From NCBI GenBank assembly GCA_905147135.1, contig LR990060.1, positions 8,572,001-8,636,000 on the forward strand: DNA of 64,000 nucleotides, read 5' to 3'. Shown in pieces: positions 8,228-58,665 of this stretch (positions are counted from its first letter, which is position 1; every line of letters begins with the position of its first letter). The position numbers and the translations under genes are program-made. The stretch comes from Blastobasis lacticolella (lineage: Eukaryota; Arthropoda; Insecta; Lepidoptera; Blastobasidae). The notes below the pieces were generated by a model. It worked only from the letters and a program-made list of their open reading frames with translations. It had not been told where the DNA came from and did not search any database.

Positions 8228-8700
8228 AAAATATATGTTGCAGATAACAAAAATGCAGAACTGCAGCTGCGATGTTACTATGAGGTCTAAGATAAAATGC
8301 CTCAACCTGTAATTTTGTTGGGTAGCTTATCCTTCAAACCTGAACCAACAATGCAAACATTGTTGCTTAGCCGCAGAAATAGATAAGGCTTTCATACTCA
8401 CACAGACGATGCTCCGCTGCTCTTACGGTGAGGGAAAACATCGTGATGAAACCTGCACATTCAGGCGACTGAATGTGTAAACATGATCCCCAATCTGGTC
8501 AGGTTCCCCTGCTAACAGGGTCATAGAGGTCAGATGGCAGTCGCTCCACTGTAATTACCTGACCTGCCAATTCCTGGATCATAGTCAAGACAGACCCCGG
8601 GCACTCGTGCGTGAGAGCACAACCGGGACATTAACGCCAAGATAATTACTCATACAGACGGACTCCTCAGGCTAGACAGAGACCTATCACCAGTTTATAT
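8228..8700 (-). mobile_element. R4 repeat, interrupted by S1
   Basis: On the minus strand this follows the R4 order seen intact at 8990-9335. Its two halves (8228-8408 and 8648-8700) are separated by an S1 copy. The join is marked by a 13-base direct repeat with one mismatch, so R4 was here before S1 arrived. Confidence 0.7.
8409..8647 (+). mobile_element. S1 SINE nested in R4, with target duplication
   Basis: 5'-truncated S1 (starts ATGCTCCGCTGCTCTTACGG, ends AACGCCAAGATAATT). It is flanked by ACTCACACAGACG at 8396-8408 and ACTCATACAGACG at 8648-8660. A 13-base target duplication plus 5' truncation is what LINE-driven retroposition leaves, so this supports S1 being a retroposon. Confidence 0.8.
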
Positions 8701-19440: not shown

Positions 19441-19544
19441 TGAATTGACGAGGCGTTCTTTAGAAAACGAATGTCTCAGAGAAGGGTACAACTAAAACTG
19501 AATAAATAATATAGAATAAGTTATTATGCCGTTTGTGCTCAAGG

Positions 19545-19860
19545 GCACGACGACCCGGTGTCCACCTTGACAATGATCCAGGATTTAGAAGATCAGTTAA
19601 TTACAGCGGAGCGACTGCTATCTGACCTTCTTGACTCTGCTACTAGGGGAATCTGACCAGATTGCATTATGGTTTTATATTCAGTCACTTGAATGTTTAA
19701 GTTTCATCACGATGTTTCCCTCACCGTCAAGAGCATCAGTGAGTATTAAACTAATGTACATAACTAAGAAAAGAGTCATTGTTAATTGACTGCAGTGGAA
19801 TTCGAACCCGGTACCTCGCGCTTATAAGTCGGATACCCACTCAGCCCCCGACGCTCCCAT
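19545..19860 (-). mobile_element. S1 SINE, full body and head
   Basis: Read on the minus strand: a tRNA-like head with a B-box-like GGGTTCGAATTCCACTGCAG, then GGTGAGGGAAACATCGTG, AATCTGGTCAGATTCCCC and GATCATTGTCAAGGTGGAC. The GAT/ATT tail has decayed. Confidence 0.7.
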
Positions 19861-21930: not shown

Positions 21931-22022
21931 TCTGACCTTTCTTTAAAATATTATCGATTTGATCTTAAGTCGATTTTTGTAATTACGAGAAATATCAAGA
22001 GATTTTAACTGAAATCGAAAGT

Positions 22023-22298
22023 ATGTTGTCTAATGAGTATAGAACAAGTAATAAAGATAATGAGGGTAATAAAGATATTAACGTCAAAGAAATGGGAAAA
22101 GAAAAACCAGAAACAAAACCATAATAATCTGCATAAGTCACAAGACAATTCGAATAGCCAAACGAAAATTAATAAAAATAGTAATAAAGTAGCCCCAATA
22201 GAATTACTCAATAAACGAACTCCATTCCATCCCGGACGAAGCAATTATAAAAACACAATAAAAAGAGGGTCCTTCAAAAAAAGGTTTAAAATGTAGGT
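22023..22298 (+). other. overlapping lysine/asparagine-rich frames at the outer edge of the inverted duplication
   Basis: A 33-codon frame (22023-22125, starting MLSNEYRTSNKDNEG) is overlapped by an 87-codon frame at 22033-22296. Both are very rich in Lys and Asn, which AT-rich DNA gives by chance. The left edge of the inverted repeat, 22107, falls inside both, so the mirror copy lacks the starts. A decayed retroelement gag is possible but unsupported. Confidence 0.2.
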
Positions 22299-22534
22299 TG
22301 ATGCTCATAAAACTGACACTTAACCGGAGTTGAAAGCGTCTGAAAAAAATGTTAAGTAAAACTGAAAGAGGCAAAGAAATTCATTTGGATTATGAACTAA
22401 ATCCTGTGTGCATGCCCCTTACCGCGGAGGGTTCTAAATTTAATTTAATTCTACTTTATTTTACGTCGCCGTTGGTTAGATTTAAAAGGCCAAGTTGCTT
22501 TGTATGTTATGTACTGTGCTTCTTTGGTAAAAAT

Positions 22535-22845
22535 AATAATGATCTTAGCAGTAACGTCTTCGTTGTGCTCTCGCGCTTGAGGGCCCGGGGTCCGACTTGA
22601 CTATGATCCAGGATTTGGCAGATCAGGTAATTGTGGTGGAGCGACTGCCGTCTGGTTTCCGTGACCCTGTTACCAGGGGATCCTGACCAGGTTGGATAAT
22701 GTGTAGATTTCATTACGATGTTTTCCCTCATCGTTAGTATTAGTATTCAACTAATATACATAACTCAGAAAAGTGACATGGGTACATGCCAGCAGTAAGA
22801 TTCGTACCCGGTACGTCTCGCTTTCGAGTACCGACATGACGGTAG
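22535..22845 (-). mobile_element. S1 SINE in left arm
   Basis: Minus-strand S1: head at about 22790-22845 (B box damaged to GGGTACGAATCTTACTGC), body and an ATTATTATTTTT tail at the low-coordinate end. Its mirror copy is at 32944-33254. Confidence 0.7.
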
Positions 22846-24164
22846 GGTTGAATGGAAGAAAGAGACATGTTGGCCGAGTATAAGGGCAGATGACGGTGAT
22901 GATGATCTTCTTCTTAACGAGTCGATGGACTTAACACAGCCTTACACTTCGTTCGCCCAGTATTCGGCGACGCATACAGCATTTGGACTGGTCTCGAACA
23001 AGTCCTCCATTGTGCAAGTTTTAGAACATGCAAAGCATGAGACGAGGTGGTCCATAGTTACTTATATAGTCTATAGTTAGACGATGCACCTAAACGTGAG
23101 GGTAAGCGATTATCCCCATATATCCTATTTCACAAATATTAAGATCATATTCTGGCATTGTTTTGTGGCAGTAATTTTCGCGTATTTCAAACGAAAATTG
23201 CGAAACAACGGCCCTATCCAGGAAGCAGTAAGGGGCCATTACTTCAGAATTTTCACTGCACAGGCTACATTTTGCGTGGGCGCTTTTTATTTACAGCTTC
23301 CTTTTAAAGCTGTACAAAAGTAGGGCTCGCGATTCGTCAGTTCCATTTGGGTGAAAGAGAACATTTTAATAGTTTATGTTAAGATAAATAGTTTCTTCAG
23401 CAAATTTTTAACTTTAGATTTGTGTATTTTCCTTTTATGTAAAAATACTGGTAATTATATTTTTGTATTTAATAAATATTGTCTGTTTTAGTGTAAATTA
23501 TAATAATTCGGCACCTTCTCTTTCACCGAACTAATATCTAAGTTTCCTTCGAGATTTGTAAGTCAGCAACCGTGATAATACTATATTGCAGCAAACTAGC
23601 TTCAGTTAAACTAGAATCAGTATTAGGACACATATATGAGATTATCAGGATGGTGGTAGGAAATTACACGATCTTATAAGCGAAATGACGACTGGCCACA
23701 ACGACTCTGCCAAGACCAAGAAGAAGGCTACATTCATAAGGTAATAAGAATAAAATAAAATAAATAAAATGTGCTTGGACATTAATTACACATAGCCTAT
23801 AGCCCCAAAGTAAGCAAAGCCTGTGTTATGGGCAAACATACGACAAGCAAGAAATAGTGATAAAGATATCTTTAGCATAAGCATATAAATGAAGCACAAC
23901 CCCAGAAATTCCCAAACAAAAGCCTGGACTATACGACAAAAAGCCAAACGAAGTAGCGACGCTAAGTTTCTGTGAATAGTTACGAAAACAATCCACCGAG
24001 GAGATAGAAGAGCTTCAGAATAAAATGTGTTGGACAGTTTTGAAATCGAGCCGACAACTTTAAGTGCCGTACTTAGCCGACTGAGGTTGATGCAGAAACG
24101 GACGAGATGTGTGTTCATGTGAGATACTCGTATCTGGGGCCTAATTTTCGCGCATATACTTCCA

Positions 24165-24367
24165 TTAATAATGACATTGAAATGTCTTTTGCAGCCAAAA
24201 TATTTTCTTAACTATCTTCAACAGTCGTATATTGTCGAAGATCAATTTCAGTGGCGTTTTAGTATGCTTTTTTGGTATTTAAATGTCACTGAGATTGATT
24301 TTCAAAAATGTAAGACAGTTGAGATAATATATTTTGGCAGCAATAGACATTTCAATGTCAATATTAA
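24165..24367. mobile_element. MITE-like element with about 60-bp inverted ends
   Basis: The left end TTAATAATGACATTGAAATG and the right end (complement of CATTTCAATGTCAATATTAA) are inverted copies, and similarity continues inward for about 60 bases. Present in all three copies (28588-28790 and 31422-31624), so it predates the duplication. It creates the 106-codon frame seen three times, which is therefore not a gene. Confidence 0.65.
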
Positions 24368-24409
24368 TAAAGATATGTGGCTAGAAAAATTTGAACGAAT
24401 TGAATATTT

Positions 24410-24575
24410 ATCCTCGAAACAAACGGTTTTCAATTTTAATTTTCAGAAAGAGTACCGTTTAAAAATAGCGAAAATCAGCATCATGCATTAAAATATCTAA
24501 TTTTTTATGGATAAAATCTAAATTGAAAACCGGTCCAATCGAGGCGAGTGATAAAAAAATAGGGCTGTGTGTAAA
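24410..24575 (-). mobile_element. copy of the MITE family at 37468-37703
   Basis: On the minus strand the segment reads CCCTATTTTTTTATCACTCG, then GGTTTTCAATTTAGATTTTA, then ATGCTGATTTTCGCTATTTT, the order seen in the 37468 element. Mirrored in A' and B. Confidence 0.5.
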
Positions 24576-25332
24576 GATAGATTGTACCTCAATATACCCA
24601 TTTTCGAAATAAAGGTCTTAAATTGATTTACATACTTTGACACAGTTTTACATTCATTGCACTTTGCTCTTTGATACATAACTTTTTATAGATTTAGGTC
24701 AATAACAATGATTATTATTGGGCCTTTGCCCAGCAGTGGGATGATTCAGCCCGATATAAATAAATAAAATGTTTCAATAGGTACAATTAAGTGTCAGATT
24801 AGTCTCATGTAACAAAAAAAGTCATCGTTACGTCTGTGTATGTACCTGAAAGTTTCGTATATTTTTTTATATGTGGAGAACCCCCACTGTATGTGGTCCC
24901 AATTTCGACAATAACGACCTACTTACAACTTACAATTGCCTTCAATTTATATAACAATGTATAACTATATATATTATAATTCTTGATATTTATTCAATTT
25001 GAAGAAATGAAAAAAGAAGTGGTGGTTCACCGAGTGTTCCATCTATACATCTTACAATTTCTATCATTCATATTGTGTTGTTGTTGTGATCTCAGTCTTA
25101 TATCTGTCCTTATATCTTTAGAAAGCACATTAGGCATTGTATTTTGAGGTGAGTGTGCAGTCCATGCCGAAGTTGGGTTGTTTTTGTGAAAATTCCGCCA
25201 ACTTTACCACAAGTGGCAGTTTAAAAGATAAAACTAGTTTCTTGAATTAAAAACTTTATACTGAATCCTCTTTTTTAGTCACAGAACGGAGTCTGCAGAG
25301 ACCGAACTCGCATTAAAGTATAATAAATCTTA

Positions 25333-25532
25333 AGGCCTTGCCACATATAAAGCTCGGCGCGAGCGCGGCGCGTTATTTGCTAGGCAACCATCGCGCGGCG
25401 CGATAGTTGCTAGGCAACCATCGCGCCGCGCGATGGTTGCCTAGCAAATAACGCGCCGCGCGATGGTTGCCTAGCAAATATCGCACCGCGCTCACGCCGC
25501 GCTCGCGCCGAGCTTTGTATGTGGCAAGGCCT
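25333..25532. mobile_element. 200-bp GC-rich MITE with TTA target duplication
   Basis: Ends AGGCCTTGCCACATA and TATGTGGCAAGGCCT are inverted and flanked by TTA at 25330-25332 and 25533-25535. The third copy of this DNA (30457-30459) has the undisturbed single site. The interior is built of inverted units around GGTTGCCTAGCAA and CGCGCCGCGCG, so the whole element can fold on itself. A 3-bp TTA/TAA duplication is typical of the PIF/Harbinger superfamily; the assignment is inference. The open frame through it is a by-product. Confidence 0.85.
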
Positions 25533-26204
25533 TTAATACTTACTTGTTCTGTTTGATGAAATATACGTATTATCATTATTTCTTTTTATTGTGATTTTTG
25601 TGTTGTCTTAGTTTCTACTTTCCTTTTTTGTCATTTAAAATTATTATGGTGTTGTTGTTTGTGTATAAATGTTATTCTTTTCTATATATGTAAGCTATGT
25701 AAACTGCAACCGGAGAGTGGAGAGAAACTAACGAATGGATTTATGTAATTTAATTTAAAGAAAAAATAATACACACGATAAGTTACATACATCATTACAT
25801 TAAAAGAGATATTTACAATATTAACAGAAGATATATAAAGAATAGACAAAACTCAACTTATTTAAAGATAAAAAATTTGCCCAAATTTCCCCGAGTAACC
25901 GGATAAGTGCCCAGAAGAATATTTAATTAGAATAACCAACTAACTAAGCTAACCTAGCGTTACTAGATTATGGACTGCTTACCTAAATAGATGAAAACCT
26001 ATATTTTTTACGAGACTCATCTCATGACACTACGTGGTGATCACATAAATACTTGATGCGATACACGTATCGCAGAGTTTGGTATTTCGTGATATTGAAG
26101 CGTATGTACAGTACAAGACCAACAGAAGTTCGAATTGGAGCCGCCCGACTGGGGAAGACCTCCACCTTACAGAATATCACAGCTAAATAATATATTTTTT
26201 AATA

Positions 26205-26448
26205 GTATTGTGTTTCTGCCGGTGAGTATGGTTTCCAGTGCTCCATAGGATGGGGATTTGGGGAACCGTGGCTTTGGCAGTGGAGTGGCAATTGCCTTTT
26301 GCTGCCAGAGCAACGTGTTATAAAAGTAGGCAACGCATTAGCGATACTCTTGGTGTTGCTAATGTGTATAGGCAGTGGTGACCACTTTCCATCAGGTGGC
26401 CCGCTTGCCTGTTTGCCTACCGTATGAAATTTAAAAAAAAACGGAATT
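26205..26448 (+). mobile_element. LINE-A 3' UTR in left arm
   Basis: Runs from TTTCTGCCGGTGAGTATGG through GGATTTGGGGAACCGTGGC and CATCAGGTGGCCCGCTTGC to CCTACCGTATGAAAT and an A run. Copies with the same start and end occur at 26507-26750, 29544-29790 and 33683-33913, always beside the AATTCCG junction motif. Confidence 0.7.
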
Positions 26449-26506
26449 ATTTTATTTTTTAATTTCAATTGTTTTTTTCAATTGTTAATTTCAATTTAAT
26501 TTCAAT
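26449..26506. repeat. 58-bp spacer at palindrome centre (junction J1)
   Basis: AT-rich and internally repetitive: CAATTG at 26466-26471 and 26479-26484 around a T run, plus several AATTTCAATT variants. It is flanked by CGGAATT (26442) and AATTCCG (26507). Its complement reappears at 29481-29550. Confidence 0.85.
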
Positions 26507-29476
26507 AATTCCGTTTTTTTTTTAATTTCATACGGTAGGCAAACAGGCAAGCGGGCCACCTGATGGAAAGTGGTCACCACTGCCTATACACATTAGCAAC
26601 ACCAAGAGTATCGCTAATGCGTTGCCTACTTTTATAACACGTTGCTCTGGCAGCAAAAGGCAATTGCCACTCCACTGCCAAAGCCACGGTTCCCCAAATC
26701 CCCACCCTATGGAGCACTGGAAACCATACTCACCGGCAGAAACACAATACTATTAAAAAATATATTATTTAGCTGTGATATTCTGTAAGGTGGAGGTCTT
26801 CCCCAGTCGGGCGGCTCCAATTCGAACTTCTGTTGGTCTTGTACTGTACATACGCTTCAATATCACGAAATACCAAACTCTGCGATACGTGTATCGCATC
26901 AAGTATTTATGTGATCACCACGTAGTGTCATGAGATGAGTCTCGTAAAAAATATAGGTTTTCATCTATTTAGGTAAGCAGTCCATAATCTAGTAACGCTA
27001 GGTTAGCTTAGTTAGTTGGTTATTCTAATTAAATATTCTTCTGGGCACTTATCCGGTTACTCGGGGAAATTTGGGCAAATTTTTTATCTTTAAATAAGTT
27101 GAGTTTTGTCTATTCTTTATATATCTTCTGTTAATATTGTAAATATCTCTTTTAATGTAATGATGTATGTAACTTATCGTGTGTATTATTTTTTCTTTAA
27201 ATTAAATTACATAAATCCATTCGTTAGTTTCTCTCCACTCTCCGGTTGCAGTTTACATAGCTTACATATATAGAAAAGAATAACATTTATACACAAACAA
27301 CAACACCATAATAATTTTAAATGACAAAAAAGGAAAGTAGAAACTAAGACAACACAAAAATCACAATAAAAAGAAATAATGATAATACGTATATTTCATC
27401 AAACAGAACAAGTAAGTATTAAAGGCCTTGCCACATACAAAGCTCGGCGCGAGCGCGGCGTGAGCGCGGTGCGATATTTGCTAGGCAACCATCGCGCGGC
27501 GCGTTATTTGCTAGGCAACCATCGCGCGGCGCGATGGTTGCCTAGCAACTATCGCGCCGCGCGATGGTTGCCTAGCAAATAACGCGCCGCGCTCGCGCCG
27601 AGCTTTATATGTGGCAAGGCCTTAAGATTTATTATACTTTAATGCGAGTTCGGTCTCTGCAGACTCCGTTCTGTGACTAAAAAAGAGGATTCAGTATAAA
27701 GTTTTTAATTCAAGAAACTAGTTTTATCTTTTAAACTGCCACTTGTGGTAAAGTTGGCGGAATTTTCACAAAAACAACCCAACTTCGGCATGGACTGCAC
27801 ACTCACCTCAAAATACAATGCCTAATGTGCTTTCTAAAGATATAAGGACAGATATAAGACTGAGATCACAACAACAACACAATATGAATGATAGAAATTG
27901 TAAGATGTATAGATGGAACACTCGGTGAACCACCACTTCTTTTTTCATTTCTTCAAATTGAATAAATATCAAGAATTATAATATATATAGTTATACATTG
28001 TTATATAAATTGAAGGCAATTGTAAGTTGTAAGTAGGTCGTTATTGTCGAAATTGGGACCACATACAGTGGGGGTTCTCCACATATAAAAAAATATACGA
28101 AACTTTCAGGTACATACACAGACGTAACGATGACTTTTTTTGTTACATGAGACTAATCTGACACTTAATTGTACCTATTGAAACATTTTATTTATTTATA
28201 TCGGGCTGAATCATCCCACTGCTGGGCAAAGGCCCAATAATAATCATTGTTATTGACCTAAATCTATAAAAAGTTATGTATCAAAGAGCAAAGTGCAATG
28301 AATGTAAAACTGTGTCAAAGTATGTAAATCAATTTAAGACCTTTATTTCGAAAATGGGTATATTGAGGTACAATCTATCTTTACACACAGCCCTATTTTT
28401 TTATCACTCGCCTCGATTGGACCGGTTTTCAATTTAGATTTTATCCATAAAAAATTAGATATTTTAATGCATGATGCTGATTTTCGCTATTTTTAAACGG
28501 TACTCTTTCTGAAAATTAAAATTGAAAACCGTTTGTTTCGAGGATAAATATTCAATTCGTTCAAATTTTTCTAGCCACATATCTTTATTAATATTGACAT
28601 TGAAATGTCTATTGCTGCCAAAATATATTATCTCAACTGTCTTACATTTTTGAAAATCAATCTCAGTGACATTTAAATACCAAAAAAGCATACTAAAACG
28701 CCACTGAAATTGATCTTCGACAATATACGACTGTTGAAGATAGTTAAGAAAATATTTTGGCTGCAAAAGACATTTCAATGTCATTATTAATGGAAGTATA
28801 TGCGCGAAAATTAGGCCCCAGATACGAGTATCTCACATGAACACACATCTCGTCCGTTTCTGCATCAACCTCAGTCGGCTAAGTACGGCACTTAAAGTTG
28901 TCGGCTCGATTTCAAAACTGTCCAACACATTTTATTCTGAAGCTCTTCTATCTCCTCGGTGGATTGTTTTCGTAACTATTCACAGAAACTTAGCGTCGCT
29001 ACTTCGTTTGGCTTTTTGTCGTATAGTCCAGGCTTTTGTTTGGGAATTTCTGGGGTTGTGCTTCATTTATATGCTTATGCTAAAGATATCTTTATCACTA
29101 TTTCTTGCTTGTCGTATGTTTGCCCATAACACAGGCTTTGCTTACTTTGGGGCTATAGGCTATGTGTAATTAATGTCCAAGCACATTTTATTTATTTTAT
29201 TTTATTCTTATTACCTTATGAATGTAGCCTTCTTCTTGGTCTTGGCAGAGTCGTTGTGGCCAGTCGTCATTTCGCTTATAAGATCGTGTAATTTCCTACC
29301 ACCATCCTGATAATCTCATATATGTGTCCTAATACTGATTCTAGTTTAACTGAAGCTAGTTTGCTGCAATATAGTATTATCACGGTTGCTGACTTACAAA
29401 TCTCGAAGGAAACTTAGATATTAGTTCGGTGAAAGAGAAGGTGCCGAATTATTATAATTTACACTAAAACAGACAA
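26507..29476 (-). repeat. inverted partial copy A'
   Basis: Reverse complement of 23479-26448. It stops abruptly at ACAGACAA (29476), whereas L and B continue with TATTTATTAAATAC. It carries the GC-rich MITE and matches L against B at the three substitutions I noted (B positions about 30171, 31026 and 31256). It is therefore a younger copy of L, or an artefact derived from L. Confidence 0.95.
27423..27622. mobile_element. mirror copy of the 200-bp GC-rich MITE
   Basis: Same element as at 25333-25532 in opposite orientation, flanked by TAA at 27420-27422 and 27623-27625. Its encoded frame is identical to that of the other copy. Confidence 0.85.
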
Positions 29477-30456
29477 CATTGAATTATTGAAATTAAATTG
29501 AAATTAACAATTGAAAAAAACAATTGAAATTAAAAAATAAAATAATTCCGTTTTTTTTTTAATTTCATACGGTAGGCAAACAGGCAAGCGGGCCACCTGA
29601 TGGAAAGTGGTCACCACTGCCTATACACATTAGCAACACCAAGAGTATCGCTAATGCGTTGCCTGCTTTTATAACACGTTGCTCTGGCAGCAAAAGGCAA
29701 ATGCCACTCCACTGCCAAAGCCACGGTTCCCCAAATCCCCACCCTATGGAGCACTGGAAACCATACTCACCGGCAGAAACACAATACTATTAAAAAATAT
29801 ATTATTTAGCTGTGATATTCTGTAAGGTGGAGGTCTTCCCCAGTCGGGCGGCTCCAATTCGAACTTCTGTTGGTCTTGTACTGTACATACGCTTCAATAT
29901 CACGAAATACCAAACTCTGCGATACGTGTATCGCATCAAGTATTTATGTGATCACCACGTAGTGTCATGAGATGAGTCTCGTAAAAAATATAGGTTTTCA
30001 TCTATTTAGGTAAGCAGTCCATAATCTAGTAACGCTAGGTTAGCTTAGTTAGTTGGTTATTCTAATTAAATATTCTTCTGGGCACTTATCCGGTTACTCG
30101 GGGAAATTTGGGCAAATTTTTTATCTTTAAATAAGTTGAGTTTTGTCTATTCTTTATATATCTTCTGTTATTATTGTAAATATCTCTTTTAATGTAATGA
30201 TGTATGTAACTTATCGTGTGTATTATTTTTTCTTTAAATTAAATTACATAAATCCATTCGTTAGTTTCTCTCCACTCTCCGGTTGCAGTTTACATAGCTT
30301 ACATATATAGAAAAGAATAACATTTATACACAAACAACAACACCATAATAATTTTAAATGACAAAAAAGGAAAGTAGAAACTAAGACAACACAAAAATCA
30401 CAATAAAAAGAAATAATGATAATACGTATATTTCATCAAACAGAACAAGTAAGTAT

Positions 30457-30459
30457 TAA
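30457..30459. other. empty target site of the 200-bp MITE
   Basis: AAGTATTAAGATTT here aligns to AAGTATTAA...TAAGATTT in A'. The single TAA shows the state before insertion, which fixes the element ends and the 3-base duplication. Confidence 0.9.
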
Positions 30460-32943
30460 GATTTATTATACTTTAATGCGAGTTCGGTCTCTGCAGACTC
30501 CGTTCTGTGACTAAAAAAGAGGATTCAGTATAAAGTTTTTAATTCAAGAAACTAGTTTTATCTTTTAAACTGCCACTTGTGGTAAAGTTGGCGGAATTTT
30601 CACAAAAACAACCCAACTTCGGCATGGACTGCACACTCACCTCAAAATACAATGCCTAATGTGCTTTCTAAAGATATAAGGACAGATATAAGACTGAGAT
30701 CACAACAACAACACAATATGAATGATAGAAATTGTAAGATGTATAGATGGAACACTCGGTGAACCACCACTTCTTTTTTCATTTCTTCAAATTGAATAAA
30801 TATCAAGAATTATAATATATATAGTTATACATTGTTATATAAATTGAAGGCAATTGTAAGTTGTAAGTAGGTCGTTATTGTCGAAATTGGGACCACATAC
30901 AGTGGGGGTTCTCCACATATAAAAAAATATACGAAACTTTCAGGTACATACACAGACGTAACGATGACTTTTTTTGTTACATGAGACTAATCTGACACTT
31001 AATTGTACCTATTGAAACATTTTATATATTTATATCGGGCTGAATCATCCCACTGCTGGGCAAAGGCCCAATAATAATCATTGTTATTGACCTAAATCTA
31101 TAAAAAGTTATGTATCAAAGAGCAAAGTGCAATGAATGTAAAACTGTGTCAAAGTATGTAAATCAATTTAAGACCTTTATTTCGAAAATGGGTATATTGA
31201 GGTACAATCTATCTTTACACACAGCCCTATTTTTTTATCACTCGCCTCGATTGGATCGGTTTTCAATTTAGATTTTATCCATAAAAAATTAGATATTTTA
31301 ATGCATGATGCTGATTTTCGCTATTTTTAAACGGTACTCTTTCTGAAAATTAAAATTGAAAACCGTTTGTTTCGAGGATAAATATTCAATTCGTTCAAAT
31401 TTTTCTAGCCACATATCTTTATTAATATTGACATTGAAATGTCTATTGCTGCCAAAATATATTATCTCAACTGTCTTACATTTTTGAAAATCAATCTCAG
31501 TGACATTTAAATACCAAAAAAGCATACTAAAACGCCACTGAAATTGATCTTCGACAATATACGACTGTTGAAGATAGTTAAGAAAATATTTTGGCTGCAA
31601 AAGACATTTCAATGTCATTATTAATGGAAGTATATGCGCGAAAATTAGGCCCCAGATACGAGTATCTCACATGAACACACATCTCGTCCGTTTCTGCATC
31701 AACCTCAGTCGGCTAAGTACGGCACTTAAAGTTGTCGGCTCGATTTCAAAACTGTCCAACACATTTTATTCTGAAGCTCTTCTATCTCCTCGGTGGATTG
31801 TTTTCGTAACTATTCACAGAAACTTAGCGTCGCTACTTCGTTTGGCTTTTTGTCGTATAGTCCAGGCTTTTGTTTGGGAATTTCTGGGGTTGTGCTTCAT
31901 TTATATGCTTATGCTAAAGATATCTTTATCACTATTTCTTGCTTGTCGTATGTTTGCCCATAACACAGGCTTTGCTTACTTTGGGGCTATAGGCTATGTG
32001 TAATTAATGTCCAAGCACATTTTATTTATTTTATTTTATTCTTATTACCTTATGAATGTAGCCTTCTTCTTGGTCTTGGCAGAGTCGTTGTGGCCAGTCG
32101 TCATTTCGCTTATAAGATCGTGTAATTTCCTACCACCATCCTGATAATCTCATATATGTGTCCTAATACTGATTCTAGTTTAACTGAAGCTAGTTTGCTG
32201 CAATATAGTATTATCACGGTTGCTGACTTACAAATCTCGAAGGAAACTTAGATATTAGTTCGGTGAAAGAGAAGGTGCCGAATTATTATAATTTACACTA
32301 AAACAGACAATATTTATTAAATACAAAAATATAATTACCAGTATTTTTACATAAAAGGAAAATACACAAATCTAAAGTTAAAAATTTGCTGAAGAAACTA
32401 TTTATCTTAACATAAACTATTAAAATGTTCTCTTTCACCCAAATGGAACTGACGAATCGCGAGCCCTACTTTTGTACAGCTTTAAAAGGAAGCTGTAAAT
32501 AAAAAGCGCCCACGCAAAATGTAGCCTGTGCAGTGAAAATTCTGAAGTAATGGCCCCTTACTGCTTCCTGGATAGGGCCGTTGTTTCGCAATTTTCGTTT
32601 GAAATACGCGAAAATTACTGCCACAAAACAATGCCAGAATATGATCTTAATATTTGTGAAATAGGATATATGGGGATAATCGCTTACCCTCACGTTTAGG
32701 TGCATCGTCTAACTATAGACTATATAAGTAACTATGGACCACCTCGTCTCATGCTTTGCATGTTCTAAAACTTGCACAATGGAGGACTTGTTCGAGACCA
32801 GTCCAAATGCTGTATGCGTCGCCGAATACTGGGCGAACGAAGTGTAAGGCTGTGTTAAGTCCATCGACTCGTTAAGAAGAAGATCATCATCACCGTCATC
32901 TGCCCTTATACTCGGCCAACATGTCTCTTTCTTCCATTCAACC

Positions 32944-33254
32944 CTACCGTCATGTCGGTACTCGAAAGCGAGACGTACCGGGTACGAATCTTACTGCTGG
33001 CATGTACCCATGTCACTTTTCTGAGTTATGTATATTAGTTGAATACTAATACTAACGATGAGGGAAAACATCGTAATGAAATCTACACATTATCCAACCT
33101 GGTCAGGATCCCCTGGTAACAGGGTCACGGAAACCAGACGGCAGTCGCTCCACCACAATTACCTGATCTGCCAAATCCTGGATCATAGTCAAGTCGGACC
33201 CCGGGCCCTCAAGCGCGAGAGCACAACGAAGACGTTACTGCTAAGATCATTATT
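32944..33254 (+). mobile_element. S1 SINE in copy B
   Basis: Mirror image of 22535-22845, including the damaged B box, so it was carried along by the duplication rather than inserted independently. Confidence 0.75.
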
Positions 33255-33682
33255 ATTTTTACCAAAGAAGCACAGTACATAACATACAAAGCAACTTGGC
33301 CTTTTAAATCTAACCAACGGCGACGTAAAATAAAGTAGAATTAAATTAAATTTAGAACCCTCCGCGGTAAGGGGCATGCACACAGGATTTAGTTCATAAT
33401 CCAAATGAATTTCTTTGCCTCTTTCAGTTTTACTTAACATTTTTTTCAGACGCTTTCAACTCCGGTTAAGTGTCAGTTTTATGAGCATCAACCTACATTT
33501 TAAACCTTTTTTTGAAGGACCCTCTTTTTATTGTGTTTTTATAATTGCTTCGTCCGGGATGGAATGGAGTTCGTTTATTGAGTAATTCTATTGGGGCTAC
33601 TTTATTACTATTTTTATTAATTTTCGTTTGGCTATTCGAATTGTCTTGTGACTTATGCAGATTATTATGGTTTTGTTTCTGG

Positions 33683-33913
33683 TGTTTCTGCCGGTGAGTA
33701 TGGTTTCCAGTGCTCCATAGGGTGGGGATTTGGGGAACCGTGGCTTTGGCAGTGGAGTGGCATTTGCCTTTTGCTGCCAGAGCAACGTGTTATAAAAGTA
33801 GGCAACGCATTAGCGATACTCTTGGTGTTGCTAATGTGTATAGGCAGTGGTGACCACTTTCCATCAGGTGGCCCGCTTGCCTGTTTGCCTACCGTATGAA
33901 ATTAAAAAAAAAA
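33683..33913 (+). mobile_element. LINE-A 3' UTR next to copy B, out of context
   Basis: In the same orientation as 26205-26448 but attached to the end of B. It has GGCATTTGCC like B, and GGGTGGGGATT unlike L, so it is not a simple copy of L's LINE-A. It ends in an A run that is part of the palindrome at 33909-33982. Confidence 0.75.
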
Positions 33914-33982
33914 CGGAATTATTTTATTTTTTAATTTCAAATTTATAAATTTGAAATTAAAAAATAAAATAATTCCGTTTTT
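33909..33982. repeat. 74-bp perfect palindrome (junction J3)
   Basis: A perfect reverse-complement pair centred at 33945.5 on ATTTATAAAT. Each arm carries CGGAATTATTTTATTTTTTA or its complement, the same AT-rich stretch found at J1 and J2. To the right the sequence becomes unrelated (AATTACATTTACTTAATA). Confidence 0.95.
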
Positions 33983-34490
33983 AATTACATTTACTTAATA
34001 ATCAGGGCACTTCAAGAACATTTTCCTTTGCAGCTACAGCAACATCATAAGGTATTTGAATTGCTAAAAGAAATAAGTTCGCTAAAATAAGGGGGCATTA
34101 GGGGTCCCTTAAGCCTAAATAACTCGTTTTTGACCCCCAGGGTTTATTTTATAACATTATAAAATAAAATTTAACTTATGACCGCTTCAAAACCTCTTCA
34201 CAACTGCATAGGAAAATGATTCTTAAGGTGGTCATGTACTTATGCCCTTATACTGTACGTACAGCTTCCGCTATCTTGGTATCGTCTAACATGGCATGTA
34301 AAAAGCAAATCCAAGCATATCCAGCCCGCCTGCCATGCGTAAAGATTATGACAATGCCCAGTGGACTGAGTTAAGGGCTATATATCTACATAATCATCTT
34401 TACACATGTAAAGGTGAGCTGTAGGTCCACTGTTGAACCGATTTTTGTCCCATTAAATAGGCTATTATAGTCCAGTCAGCGTCAGAGTGT
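33983..34490. other. no gene; decayed S3 piece at about 34335-34400
   Basis: CCAGCCCGCCTGCCATGCGT followed by AAAGATTATGACAATG and CCAGTGGACTGAGTTAAGGG resembles the S3 3' region. Nothing else recognised. Confidence 0.4.
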
Positions 34491-34593
34491 AGTGAACCTC
34501 CTATTTAAAATTGTCCTGTCTTCGTCTCAAGATTTAATCACGTGTGTGATTTACTTCGTTACGAAGACAGGACAATTTGGATCGAACTTCACT
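34491..34593. mobile_element. 103-bp inverted-repeat element
   Basis: An 18-base perfect inverted pair (AAATTGTCCTGTCTTCGT at 34508-34525 and its complement at 34561-34578) sits inside looser inverted ends AGTGAAC...GTTCGAT...CACT. Likely a very short MITE or a stem-loop; no target duplication seen. Confidence 0.55.
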
Positions 34594-38640: not shown

Positions 38641-38727
38641 GAGGGTGTCTAGCTAAATATGGGCTAAAGAGGTTTTGAAAGTCGAACTCTGTGCTATCCA
38701 ATAGTTCCCTATACTACAAATAAAAAC

Positions 38728-39052
38728 AATCATCTTGGCGTCAATGTCAAGCTTGTGGTCTCAAGTACGAGAGCCCGGTATCCAGAATTTGCCAGATTAG
38801 GGAATTACAGTGGATCTACTGCTATCTGACCTCCGCGACTCTGCTACCAGGAGAACCTGACAGGATTGGATCATTCAGTCGCCTGAGTGTGCAGGTTTCA
38901 TCACAATGTTTTCCCTTACCGTAATAGCATTAGTGTTTAACTAATGTACATAACTCAGCAAGGAGTCATTGGCACATGGCCGCAGTGGGGATCTAACTCG
39001 GTACCTCTCGCTTACGAGGCCAATCCGCTAGTCACAACGCCACCGACGCTCT
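38728..39052 (-). mobile_element. S1 SINE with head
   Basis: On the minus strand the head region carries GTAAGCGAGAGGTACCGAGT, with the B box decayed; the body includes CGGTAAGGGAAAACATTG and CAATCCTGTCAGGTTCTCC. It lies about 90 bases downstream of S3. Confidence 0.7.
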
Positions 39053-40825: not shown

Positions 40826-41185
40826 ATAATGATAAAAAGTCTGGTTGTACTCTCGCGCAGGGCCCGGGGTCCACCTGGACCATGATCCAGTATTAGGCAG
40901 ATCAGATAATTACAGTGGAGCGACTGCCATCTGACCTCCGTGACCCTGCTACCAGGGGAACCTGATTGGATCATGGTTACATATTCAGTCGCCTGAATGC
41001 AGATTTCATCTCGATGTTTTCCCTCATATTAACATTTAACATTTTTTAACATGGTTAACATTCAACTCTTGTACATAACTCATAAAAGAGTCATTAGTGA
41101 CTCTTTGACCAGTGACTCTTTTCGACCATGTGGCCGCAGTGGGATCGGAACCTGGTACCTCTTGCTTACGAGTCGGATTCCTAAT
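40826..41185 (-). mobile_element. S1 SINE with head
   Basis: Minus strand: head with GTAAGCAAGAGGTACCAGG, body CCATGATCCAATCAGG and GGTCAGATGGCAGTCGCTCC, and 3' GGGCCCTGCGCGAGAG. A partial internal duplication of the GACTCTTTT block occurs at about 41090-41125. Confidence 0.7.
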
Positions 41186-44108: not shown

Positions 44109-44114
44109 ATAAAT

Positions 44115-44503
44115 GTCGCAGCCGGATGGTTAAATTAGCCGGTTAATTAAATGGCTAGCTTTTTAAGCAATTATTTAATTTAATATTTGCCAAATTCATA
44201 AACTTTGAAAGTTACATCTAACGAACGATATTGCCCCGAGTTTACGGAGCTCCTCCATACATTGTCACAACAATAACCTAACCCAACCGAATTAAAACGT
44301 AATGCAAACTATTGTTATTGTTGGAGATTATTGTGATTAAGTTAGCATTGTGACAATATTTTGAGGAGCTCCGTAAACTCGGGTTAATTTTTTCCTTTAA
44401 ATATTGCATTAAAAAAAATTGAAATTAGCAAATTTTCTATTAAATAATAGCATAAAAAGCTAGCCGTTTAATTAACTGGCTAATTTAACCATCCGGCTGC
44501 GAC
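44115..44503. mobile_element. 389-bp foldback element with 6-bp target duplication
   Basis: Ends GTCGCAGCCGGATGGTTAAA and its near-complement at the right pair over about 60 bases, including TTAATTAAATGGCTAGCTTT against AAAGCTAGCCGTTTAATTAA. ATAAAT flanks both sides (44109-44114 and 44504-44509). No coding capacity. A second inverted-repeat unit sits in its centre. Confidence 0.8.
44235..44383. mobile_element. inner inverted-repeat unit nested in the foldback element
   Basis: CCCGAGTTTACGGAGCTCCT at 44235 pairs with its complement ending at 44383. A second inner pair, ATTGTCACAA and TTGTGACAAT, lies just inside. It may be an independent 149-bp MITE or simply the inner stem of the larger element. 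Confidence 0.65.
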
Positions 44504-44639
44504 ATAAATAAACTCAGCAGGGATAAACATAAAAAACCGGTTATCACACCTATCTCACACATGGCAGAGTACATTTGAGCACAATACATGGCATAATATA
44601 GCATACAAGAAACGATGGGAAAGGGGCAATGCTATCGTT

Positions 44640-56200: not shown

Positions 56201-57624
56201 TAGTTTGAAACAAATATGAAAATACAACTTTCAACTTTGAACGTTTGATTCTGACCAATAGCATTTTGACAACTCGACCTCATGCGACACCTAGTGGAAT
56301 TTTGATACGTATTAGCATTCATTCAGTTTAAATAGATCAACTGCGAGTCTGTATTAGCACACCGTATACGCCACACGATACGTTCTGAGTAGACACATGT
56401 ATTCTGAAATCTTATATATAATTACAATTTAGACTACTTTTAAAAAGGTAAGGTACATGATTATTATCGCTTAGACTCTAATAAATGTTTGCAAAGGTAC
56501 AGTAGTGTTTGTTATTTTAAACTGAATTCTATATATTTATAGTATGTCTGTCTATTTTTTTAAACTCATTCGTTAAACCTTATTTTTCTCTTCCATATTA
56601 AAATTTGCTCTTACACTACTACCAGCTCACGTGAAACATTCCCTATTCCCAAAGGTTGCCTAGAAGACATCACTTAAAGCGATAAGGCCGCATTTGAGCG
56701 CATGTATATTATCATAACTATGTGTGCAATAGTTGTACAATAGTTGTATAGTTAGTGCTACAGATAAATTGAGAGGTTATTTTAGCCACCACACTAGGGC
56801 AGGCCTGTATCGTGGGGCCGGAATATATTTATGGATTCATCTATGCTTAGGAAAACTATACTTTGGGCAACATAACAATTTCATATTGGGTTACATTCAA
56901 GTAATTGAGTGAGTTGTAGTGTAAGTGTTTTACTTACTTGCTTAGACAATACAATATGAACGTAAAGTCTTTTGCTCCATTTGTCGCGACAAAATCATTC
57001 GTTTAGTCGATCTCAATCACAACCTCAGGCTTGACAGTATCCTACCACCTGAAAACCACACACGTTGTTCTACAAACGAATACTGTGTCCCATAGACCGA
57101 TTGTCCCCCACAATCTTACCGGTAGATTGTTTTACCCTTCCTTTGATATATACTCCTTTATATTGGTGTGGGATTCTTTGTGATTTATCGCCCGACGCGA
57201 CCTCTCGAGACCTTTTTGAGAAGTCAAAAAGATGTTTATAATTTTTGGATCACCGCCCGTAGGCACGCCGCGGGGGCCTCGCATGTTTTCTGCATTCCTT
57301 TGACGGTTATTTGGGAATAAAATAGTACGATGACGCAACAAAATGGCGACCGTTTGATCCTTGCCGTAAACGAGGTGAGGGGATTTGTGGAGCCTTATAG
57401 AGCGCGTATGTGAAGACCGTTTTGCAACGTAGCTACGAGCGCAAGGTTGTAGTAATATGGCGCGGAATAGTTGGAAAACGGAGTCGTTTTATTTATTTAC
57501 ATCGGTTCGAAATTCTGTCTGAAATTGTTTCTATGATTTAATTGCAATTTTCGGTGGGTAATGAAGTCTGCACAAACTAAACGTACGAACATTACATTAA
57601 ATTCAAGTGATTACGAAATTAAAG
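56201..57624. other. no gene recognised
   Basis: An R4-like scrap (CTCAGGCTTGACAGTATCCT) lies near 57026. The minus frame 57132-57341 has no motif. Confidence 0.4.
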
Positions 57625-57945
57625 GTATCCGACTCGTAAGCGAGAGGTACCGGTTTCGAATCCCACTGCGGCTATGAACCAATGACTCTTTTATGAGTTA
57701 GGTATGTACTTTAGTTGAAAGCTAACCGATGCTCTCACGGTGAGGGAAAACACCGTGATGAATCGTGCCCAGGCGACTGAATGCGTAACAATGATCTAAT
57801 CTGGTTAGGTTCCCCTGGTAGCAGTAGAGGTCAGATGGCAGTCGCTCCACTGTAATCCGAACTGCCAAATCCTGGATAGTGGTCAAGGCGGACCCCGGGC
57901 CCTCGTGCGCGAGGGCACAACCAGGATATTAACGCCATGATATAT
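57625..57945 (+). mobile_element. S1 SINE
   Basis: GGTATCCGACTCGTAAGCGA, B box GTTTCGAATCCCACTGCGG, body CGGTGAGGGAAAACACCGTG and end CCTCGTGCGCGAGGGCACAA, AACGCCATGATATATTTT. The A-box part of the head is missing. Confidence 0.75.
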
Positions 57946-58665
57946 TTTTTCTTCAGAAATTGTTTCATGAGATTCGATTGCTTCGCTTTGCTTCATTCGG
58001 TGAATAATGAAGTCTGCATTAATTAAGCGCTCGATTATTGCATTAAATTGATGTTGCAACGAAATAAAAATATTTGTGGAATAAAATACGAATACAAAAC
58101 AAACATGAACCATTAGTAGAATGAAACTCTGAAACTACTTATGAAACATATACAAAATCATTCACAAGGATGGAATCAGGCAATCGATTTTCAACTCAAG
58201 AAAAGCATTTGAACAAAGACAAAAGCTCTAAAATATAAAAGCACCCGCCACCCGAATGTGAAAACATTTCATCTGGTTTTTGTCGTCTTATGCAGTTCGC
58301 AGAATGTTAAACTCTTTTGAGTTATGCATCTTCGTCTATGCCAGTGAATAGTGATGGCAAAATACTCTGGTGTTATACTGGGTCATGAAAGAATTTTGTT
58401 ATAAACTATTGTTTACTTCATTGATTAAATTATTTTATTGATATATTGAATCTGAAATATTTTCTACAACTTTTACATATAATTCAGTTCTCACGGGAAT
58501 TATGCTATTTTAACTTTAAGTCCGCTTTTTTACTTTTGGTGCATGAAGTTTAAATAAATAAATAAATGTGTGGAATGTAATAACCGAATATAGCAGCATT
58601 TGTCTACTTTTTAAGAGTATGTTACGGGTTTTCTACCGCGTACCTTTGTGTGTGATAATAACCGC
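57946..58665. other. no feature recognised
   Basis: ATTGTTTC/GAAATTG and TAATGAAGTCTGCA motifs flank the S1 copy on both sides (about 57521-57580 and 57955-58020), suggesting that S1 split or accompanied an older repeat. No gene. Confidence 0.4.

What the first reader, a model, noticed from the sequence alone, without database searches (positions are those of the whole stretch)
22107..33682. 11.6-kb inverted duplication with three copies of one segment
L, A' and B are copies of one another with only a handful of substitutions. L and B pair over their full length, A' is a truncated middle copy. Mirrored frames encode identical peptides. The event is very recent, or it is created by assembly of two haplotypes plus a palindromic read. 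It is the dominant unexplained structure of the window and matches no standard transposon: the outer ends show no inverted terminal motif, no target duplication and no transposase.
Basis: partly seen in the sequence, partly recalled or inferred. Interest (0 to 1): 0.8.

Follow-up and report, generated by a model that had tools for sequence, protein, structure and literature searches.

The report
Inverted segmental duplication beside a SINE
A 4.4-kb piece of an animal chromosome was copied backwards next to itself at least twice, most likely by replication switching templates at a hairpin-forming sequence beside a mobile element, an ordinary kind of mutation whose steps can here be put in a likely order.

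Summary
The inverted duplication is real in the assembly, with corrections. A 4.4-kb unit (u22106-26511) lies as L (+), A' (-, truncated) and B (-, full length). A 203-bp TTAA-flanked MITE is in L and A' and cleanly absent from B. In the 577-Mb genome the part tested (22100-25333) matches at length only here. The breakpoints sit at the AT-rich tail of a SINE-like element. L-A' joins at an inverted repeat (8 bp safe, 15 bp as read) with a 52-bp spacer, B-T at 2 bp of microhomology: this resembles template-switch inverted triplications (ODIRA, fold-back, MMBIR), not a transposon. Four substitutions polarised with ten SINE copies, plus the MITE, fit one history: B and T first; then MITE and a mutation in L; then A' copied from L. 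A simple palindromic-read artefact does not predict this. No reads were available, so a collapse of two haplotypes stays possible. New member of a known kind; modest interest.

The parts
22106..26451 (+). L: copy of the unit in + orientation; probably the resident copy, since no break is seen with the left flank
   Evidence: an open frame 22009-22296 runs across the left boundary, weak evidence because the frame has no homologue at E <= 0.01
25330..25532 (.). 203 bp = GC-rich palindromic MITE plus one TTAA, in L (second TTAA at 25533-25536)
   Evidence: family genome-wide: the 40 scored of 1061 candidates are 99-100% identical, 2 of them L and A'
26128..26441 (+). E: SINE-like retroelement ending in poly-A, in L (both ends approximate, read by eye)
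   Evidence: 40 of 2357 candidates scored; the 37 rows outside this locus match at 94-97% and end at query 228-253 of 329, at the poly-A
26444..26451 (+). left arm of the inverted repeat at the SINE tail (GAATTATT; 15 bp if AAAAACG is counted)
26452..26503 (.). 52-bp AT-rich spacer between L and A' (13-bp tandem repeats)
26504..26511 (+). right arm of the inverted repeat (AATAATTC), the L-A' join
26504..29480 (-). A': inverted partial copy of u26451 to about u23476; carries the MITE (27423-27625)
29477..29480 (.). A'-B join: 4 bp between the last exact match of A' and the first of B
29481..33683 (-). B: inverted full-length copy of u26511 to u22106, without the MITE (single TTAA at 30456-30459)
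33682..33683 (.). B-T join, 2-bp microhomology GT
33682..33940 (+). T: direct copy of u26210-26468 (3' part of the SINE plus tail)
33909..33982 (.). perfect 74-bp palindrome (two 37-bp arms, no spacer) ending T; the right flank starts at 33983
   Evidence: (DNA hairpin -33 kcal/mol, z -10.1)

Best explanation
A local inverted segmental duplication made by replication (or break-induced replication) switching templates at a hairpin-forming AT-rich tail behind a SINE. Step 1 (inferred): synthesis through L turned back at the tail and copied the unit in reverse to u22106 (B), then switched back to the forward strand at u26210 through 2 bp of microhomology and went on into the right flank (T). The result is a + - + arrangement. 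Step 2: a TTAA MITE entered L, and L took at least one further substitution. Step 3 (inferred): at the centre of that palindrome a second fold-back, at an inverted repeat with a 52-bp spacer, copied L in reverse for about 3 kb (A') and returned to the start of B, moving the two long arms apart. Shown: the anatomy, the joins, the MITE difference, the polarity of four substitutions. Inferred: the replication mechanism, and that the steps were separate events rather than one event followed by gene conversion. (The second and third rivals below overlap with this reading: they differ only in the number of events or in what started them, so the odds are not exclusive.)
For: Unit and joins. At length the tested part of the unit (22100-25333) matches only at the three places here in 577 Mb; of 45 listed matches the 39 elsewhere are about 150-320 bp at 70-92% identity (40 of 12732 candidates scored). 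The breakpoint tail is absent from the ten SINE copies fetched, and the best-scored copies stop before it. Inverted repeat 8 bp (15 bp as read) with 52-bp spacer; yeast ODIRA junctions use 5-6 bp repeats 40-80 bp apart, and in roughly 5-10% of yeast triplications new microhomology junctions widened the arm spacing to 1.1-34.9 kb (PMC10766186, section 7). Tail hairpins: T z -10.1 and the L-A' join z -5.9, each 0 of 200 shuffles as good; B tail z -2.4, 5 of 200 as good. B-T join 2 bp; the human table gives mostly 0-6 bp where a microhomology is stated, once 47 bp. Polarity by 10 of 10 fetched SINE copies: 26291 derived in L and A', 26250 in L alone, 26327 in B alone; 26432 derived in L by 9 of 10 (at the start of the poly-A, so less sure). 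MITE in L and A', clean single TTAA in B.
Against: No reads, no second individual, no related genome: the structure rests on one assembly. A 2-bp overlap is about what chance gives and proves little alone. Hairpin-forming repeats are not rare nearby: 10 inverted repeats with arms >=15 bp and spacer <=80 bp lie outside the locus in 264 kb, one with 39-bp arms. The order of events rests on the MITE and one polarised shared substitution (26291); 24533, 24763 and 25821 agree but are unpolarised. Gene conversion from L to A' would give the same pattern. L-B differences are unevenly spread (none in u22106-24532, P about 0.002; four in u26210-26441, P about 0.0003; both tests chosen after seeing the data), which a simple clock does not explain. 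No replication origin was tested. The second repeat arm in L/A' and in T may itself be a product of the fold-back.
Confidence: 0.62

Rival explanations
1. Assembly artefact: two haplotypes (with and without the MITE) joined in inverted orientation through fold-back or palindromic reads.
For: No read evidence available; L-A' and L-B differ by only 0.07% and 0.17%, as alleles could; one allele with and one without a young MITE is plausible.
Against: A missed-adapter palindrome has one centre and identical arms (recalled). Here there are two long axes, three joins, a fourth fragment T, and substitutions that fit one ordered history when polarised with an outside family. Haplotype duplicates are normally placed in direct, not inverted, order (recalled). 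The 264-kb neighbourhood has no N.
Confidence: 0.15
2. Real, but one event: all copies arose together by serial template switching, and later gene conversion between L and A' (and loss of the MITE from B by precise excision) made A' look younger.
For: Close inverted copies convert one another readily (recalled); TTAA elements of the piggyBac type are known for precise excision (recalled); the zero-difference stretch u22106-24532 between L and B hints at conversion.
Against: Needs extra steps; B and T keep the SINE family's state at 26291 while L and A' share a derived one.
Confidence: 0.22
3. Hairpin-capped double-strand break and palindromic fusion (or fold-back of a resected end), followed by joining to T and the right flank, rather than fork template switching.
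For: Perfect 74-bp palindrome and hairpin-forming tail at the breakpoint; fold-back after a break, with a spacer bounded by short inverted sequences, is reported for human inverted duplications (PMC3907307, abstract), as at L-A' here.
Against: The outcomes named in that abstract are dicentrics, terminal deletions, translocations and rings; this duplication is interstitial and continues into a flank. Sequence alone does not decide.
Confidence: 0.2
4. A composite or giant transposable element with long inverted arms.
For: Long inverted arms; SINE and MITE inside.
Against: No other long copy in 577 Mb for the part tested; no Pfam match above cut-off in the three unit frames and one boundary frame given (7 proteins in all); no target duplication or terminal motif seen by eye at u22106/33683.
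Confidence: 0.03

Closest known systems
Inverted triplication by ODIRA (yeast SUL1; proposed for human inverted CNVs; PMC10766186 abstract, section 5 part 1 of 2 and section 7; PMC4689423 abstract and section 9)
   Same: + - + order, interstitial, inverted join at a short interrupted inverted repeat (52-bp spacer here, 40-80 bp there), secondary rearrangement at the palindromic junction that moves the arms apart
   Different: Only 259 bp is in true + - + triplication; the other join (B-T) is at 2-bp microhomology; the secondary change is an inserted further copy rather than loss of an arm; no origin tested
DUP-TRP/INV-DUP rearrangements (PLP1, MECP2; PMC4352052 abstract, table in PMC10766186 section 5)
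   Same: One join at inverted repeats, the other mostly at a few bp of microhomology; quadruplication also reported
   Different: At the small end of the sizes reported (a few kb to thousands of kb for the duplicated parts); seen in a reference genome, not in a patient
Small inverted triplications linked to FEN1/rad27 (PMC13334657, abstract only)
   Same: + - + with a short spacer (30 bp) and a short breakpoint junction (6 bp)
   Different: 148/160/148 bp on average there; here 259 bp triplicated within a 4.4-kb inverted duplication
Palindrome-associated 16p13.3 triplications (PMC12824621, abstract only)
   Same: Central inverted segment beside a palindrome
   Different: 30-811 kb, beside a 144-kb palindrome, disease cases
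Segmental duplications of Lepidoptera (PMC5499213, abstract only)
   Same: Recent, high-identity, often TE-associated blocks

Membership tests
Template-switch inverted triplication (ODIRA-like) | Middle copy inverted between two direct copies (+ - +) | tested here: met
   L(+), B(-), T(+) over u26210-26468
Template-switch inverted triplication (ODIRA-like) | Inverted join at a pre-existing short interrupted inverted repeat (40-80 bp apart) | tested here: inconclusive
   8-bp arms, 52-bp spacer at L-A' and in B's tail, but whether it pre-existed cannot be shown without an ancestral locus
Template-switch inverted triplication (ODIRA-like) | Both joins palindromic at short inverted repeats | tested here: not met
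   B-T join is a 2-bp overlap between unrelated places; so not filed as unmodified ODIRA
Template-switch inverted triplication (ODIRA-like) | Replication origin inside the amplified segment | not testable with these tools
   no origin data for this genome
MMBIR/FoSTeS complex rearrangement | Serial short-homology joins with copy gain, interstitial | tested here: met
   2-bp join B-T, 8-bp join L-A', unresolved 4 bp at A'-B; copy number 2-3-4. The joins fit, but such short overlaps also arise by chance
DNA transposon or composite element | Target-site duplication, terminal motif or transposase, copies elsewhere | tested here: not met
   none seen by eye at the outer ends, no family match above cut-off in the frames given, no other long copy in the genome for 22100-25333
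TTAA MITE inside the unit | TTAA on both sides, inverted termini, many near-identical copies, empty site with one TTAA | tested here: met
Missed-adapter palindromic read artefact | Single centre, identical arms | tested here: not met
   two long axes, 7 of 4203 substitutions L-B, MITE difference

The most novel reading that the evidence does not exclude
The locus is a natural record of palindrome self-repair in the germline: a near-perfect 4.2-kb-armed palindrome, made by one fork switch at a SINE tail, was later broken up not by losing an arm but by a second switch at its own centre that wrote in a further, 3-kb copy, with a MITE insertion dating the interval between the two steps. SINE tails that happen to form hairpins would then be repeat hot spots for such serial inversions.
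Probability: 0.35. Interest if true: 0.5.

Novelty: new member of a known kind. Interest (0 to 1): 0.33.

Why it matters
The inverted triplications in the papers seen here come from yeast experiments, patients and tumours. A case in a reference genome whose joins are still readable, and whose steps can be ordered with a MITE and a SINE family, shows how such palindromes may arise and be broken up outside the laboratory. It also warns that long near-identical inverted copies in animal assemblies need not be read artefacts. It has no known effect on a gene.

Tried and rejected
Transposon: rejected. Gene content: three frames of the unit and one across its left end gave no Pfam match above cut-off (weak sub-threshold matches only, best E 0.025); the frame across the left boundary (22009-22293) had 11 candidates and no homologue at E <= 0.01, so it supports the continuity of L with its left flank only weakly. 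RNA families: 0 matches in the window at gathering score, 4227 families; tRNA: none. Text search for SINE words in papers: 0 papers. Whole-genome searches of u25534-26215, both flanks and the tail pattern did not complete (server busy), so uniqueness is shown only for 22100-25333. T as an independent SINE insertion: rejected, because T carries the same post-poly-A tail start as L and B, absent from the 10 fetched SINE copies. That the genome is lepidopteran is a recalled impression from repeat style; it was not tested and nothing rests on it. The mutation rates used for a rough age are recalled; they give about 0.1-0.4 million generations for L-B.
Full report
What is there. The window lies at C21:8572001-8636000 of an unnamed 577-Mb, 45-contig genome. 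Self-comparison confirms an inverted duplication. In unit coordinates (u = window position in L) the order is: left flank; L (+, u22106 to u26451); a 52-bp spacer; A' (-, u26451 to about u23476, window 26504-29480); B (-, u26511 to u22106, window 29481-33683); T (+, u26210 to u26468, window 33682-33940), which runs into a perfect 74-bp palindrome (33909-33982); right flank from 33983.

Differences. L-A' 2 substitutions of 2976 compared bases (a third, 23478, lies at the A'-B join and is set aside); L-B 7 of 4203; A'-B 5 of 2773 (a sixth, the same join base, set aside); L-T 3 of 259; A'-T 1 of 242; B-T 1 of 259. The long aligned blocks carry no gaps; the self-alignment 23475-29480 has 10 gap positions, and the pairwise alignment places the only L-A' gap inside the spacer. 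The only long difference is 203 bp present in L and A' and absent in B.

The 203 bp is a MITE. It is a GC-rich palindrome with TTAA on both sides; B has a single clean TTAA. The 40 candidates scored of 1061 are 99-100% identical over at least 206 bp, 38 of them elsewhere in the genome. These are the best of the candidates, so the result shows a young set of copies, not the age of the whole family.

The breakpoint is a SINE tail. The unit ends in a SINE-like element with poly-A. 40 of 2357 candidates were scored; the 37 rows outside the locus match at 94-97% and stop at query position 228-253 of 329, at the poly-A. Ten of them were fetched and aligned: they have variable 5' ends and none carries the tail that follows the poly-A here. 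That tail holds the inverted repeat GAATTATT/AATAATTC (15 bp if AAAAACG and CGTTTTT are counted) around a 52-bp spacer in L/A' and in B (second arm 8 bp in B), and a 44-bp spacer, perfectly palindromic, in T. Folded as DNA, T's tail gives -33 kcal/mol, z -10.1, and the L-A' join z -5.9, each 0 of 200 shuffles as good; B's tail alone gives z -2.4, 5 of 200 as good. Control: in the 264-kb neighbourhood 18 inverted repeats with arms of at least 15 bp and spacer up to 80 bp were listed, eight inside this locus (three in each of the two MITE copies, one at L-A', one in T) and ten outside, one of these with 39-bp arms. Such sites are thus not unique to the locus.

Joins. L-A': the 8-bp repeat. A'-B: A' matches exactly to 29476 and B from 29481, leaving 4 bp. 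B-T: 2-bp overlap GT, in itself no more than chance may give.

History. At four positions inside the SINE the ten fetched copies give polarity: 26250 (10 of 10 G) and 26432 (9 of 10 A; at the start of the poly-A, so less sure) are derived in L alone; 26291 (10 of 10 T) is derived in L and A'; 26327 (10 of 10 T) is derived in B alone. With the MITE this reads: B and T first, then the MITE and 26291 in L, then A' from L, then 26250 and 26432 in L. 24533, 24763 and 25821 (L = A', not B) agree but are unpolarised. None of the seven sites conflicts. Gene conversion from L to A' would also give this pattern. B starts with the spacer in reverse, so before A' came L and B probably met in a nearly perfect palindrome; A' lies at that centre. 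The uneven spread of L-B differences hints at conversion or at mutation near the break, but both tests were chosen after the fact.

Mechanism. Fold-back at an interrupted short inverted repeat, return by a short overlap and an interstitial outcome resemble template-switch inverted triplications: ODIRA in yeast (PMC10766186 abstract, section 5 part 1 of 2 and section 7 read; PMC4689423 abstract and section 9 read), human DUP-TRP/INV-DUP (PMC4352052 abstract), fold-back inverted duplications (PMC3907307 abstract), small inverted triplications (PMC13334657 abstract) and palindrome-associated triplications (PMC12824621 abstract). Brewer and colleagues report junctions at microhomology that widen arm spacing from 40-80 bp to 1.1-34.9 kb in roughly 5-10% of yeast cases; here A' widens the L-B spacing to about 3 kb by insertion instead of deletion. 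That this variant is unreported is not claimed: the searches made were made, seen as listings.

Uniqueness. For 22100-25333 the genome holds three long places, all in this locus. Of the 45 listed matches three more are the unit's own internal near-palindrome, and the 39 elsewhere are dispersed repeats of about 150-320 bp at 70-92% identity (40 of 12732 candidates scored, so counts of repeats are lower bounds). The remaining part of the unit and both flanks could not be searched (server busy).

Artefact. No reads are available. A single missed-adapter palindrome does not fit two axes, substitutions and the MITE. A join of two haplotypes in inverted order remains possible but needs several errors that happen to mimic an ordered history; I give it 0.15.

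Function. None shown. The region is repeat-rich, and the long frames nearby look like non-LTR retrotransposon genes (by eye). A 3-kb inverted pair could yield a long hairpin RNA if transcribed; this was not tested.

Noticed in passing
G000:C21 about 8537088-8544480 (window coordinates -34912 to -27520; loci L015-L016): An exact head-to-tail tandem duplication of about 3.7 kb (100%, no gaps) that ends about 50 kb upstream of the finding, with a retrotransposon-like open frame of about 750 aa in both copies. Very recent or an assembly error.
   Followed up: partly
25330-25532 and 27423-27625: GC-rich palindromic TTAA MITE with 42-bp perfect internal arms, about 200 bp; the 38 best-scored copies elsewhere in the genome are 99-100% identical (1061 candidates): recently active.
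   Followed up: partly
22528-22829, and 2523-2879, 8414-8648, 19498-19856, 38719-39018, 40841-41182, 57623-57956: A dispersed repeat of about 300 bp at roughly 69-85% identity many times in the window, and in the genome.
   Followed up: no
24164-24368: Internal near-palindrome of about 205 bp (73% self-complementary) inside the unit, in all three long copies.
   Followed up: no
26250-26432 (SINE in L, A', B, T): Four of the seven L-B differences fall in the SINE part u26210-26441, and none in u22106-24532; uneven spread, possibly conversion or mutation near the break.
   Followed up: partly
44113-44505 and 34508-34578: Other inverted repeats: 44113-44505 self-complementary at 76%, and an 18-bp-armed repeat in the right flank.
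   Followed up: no
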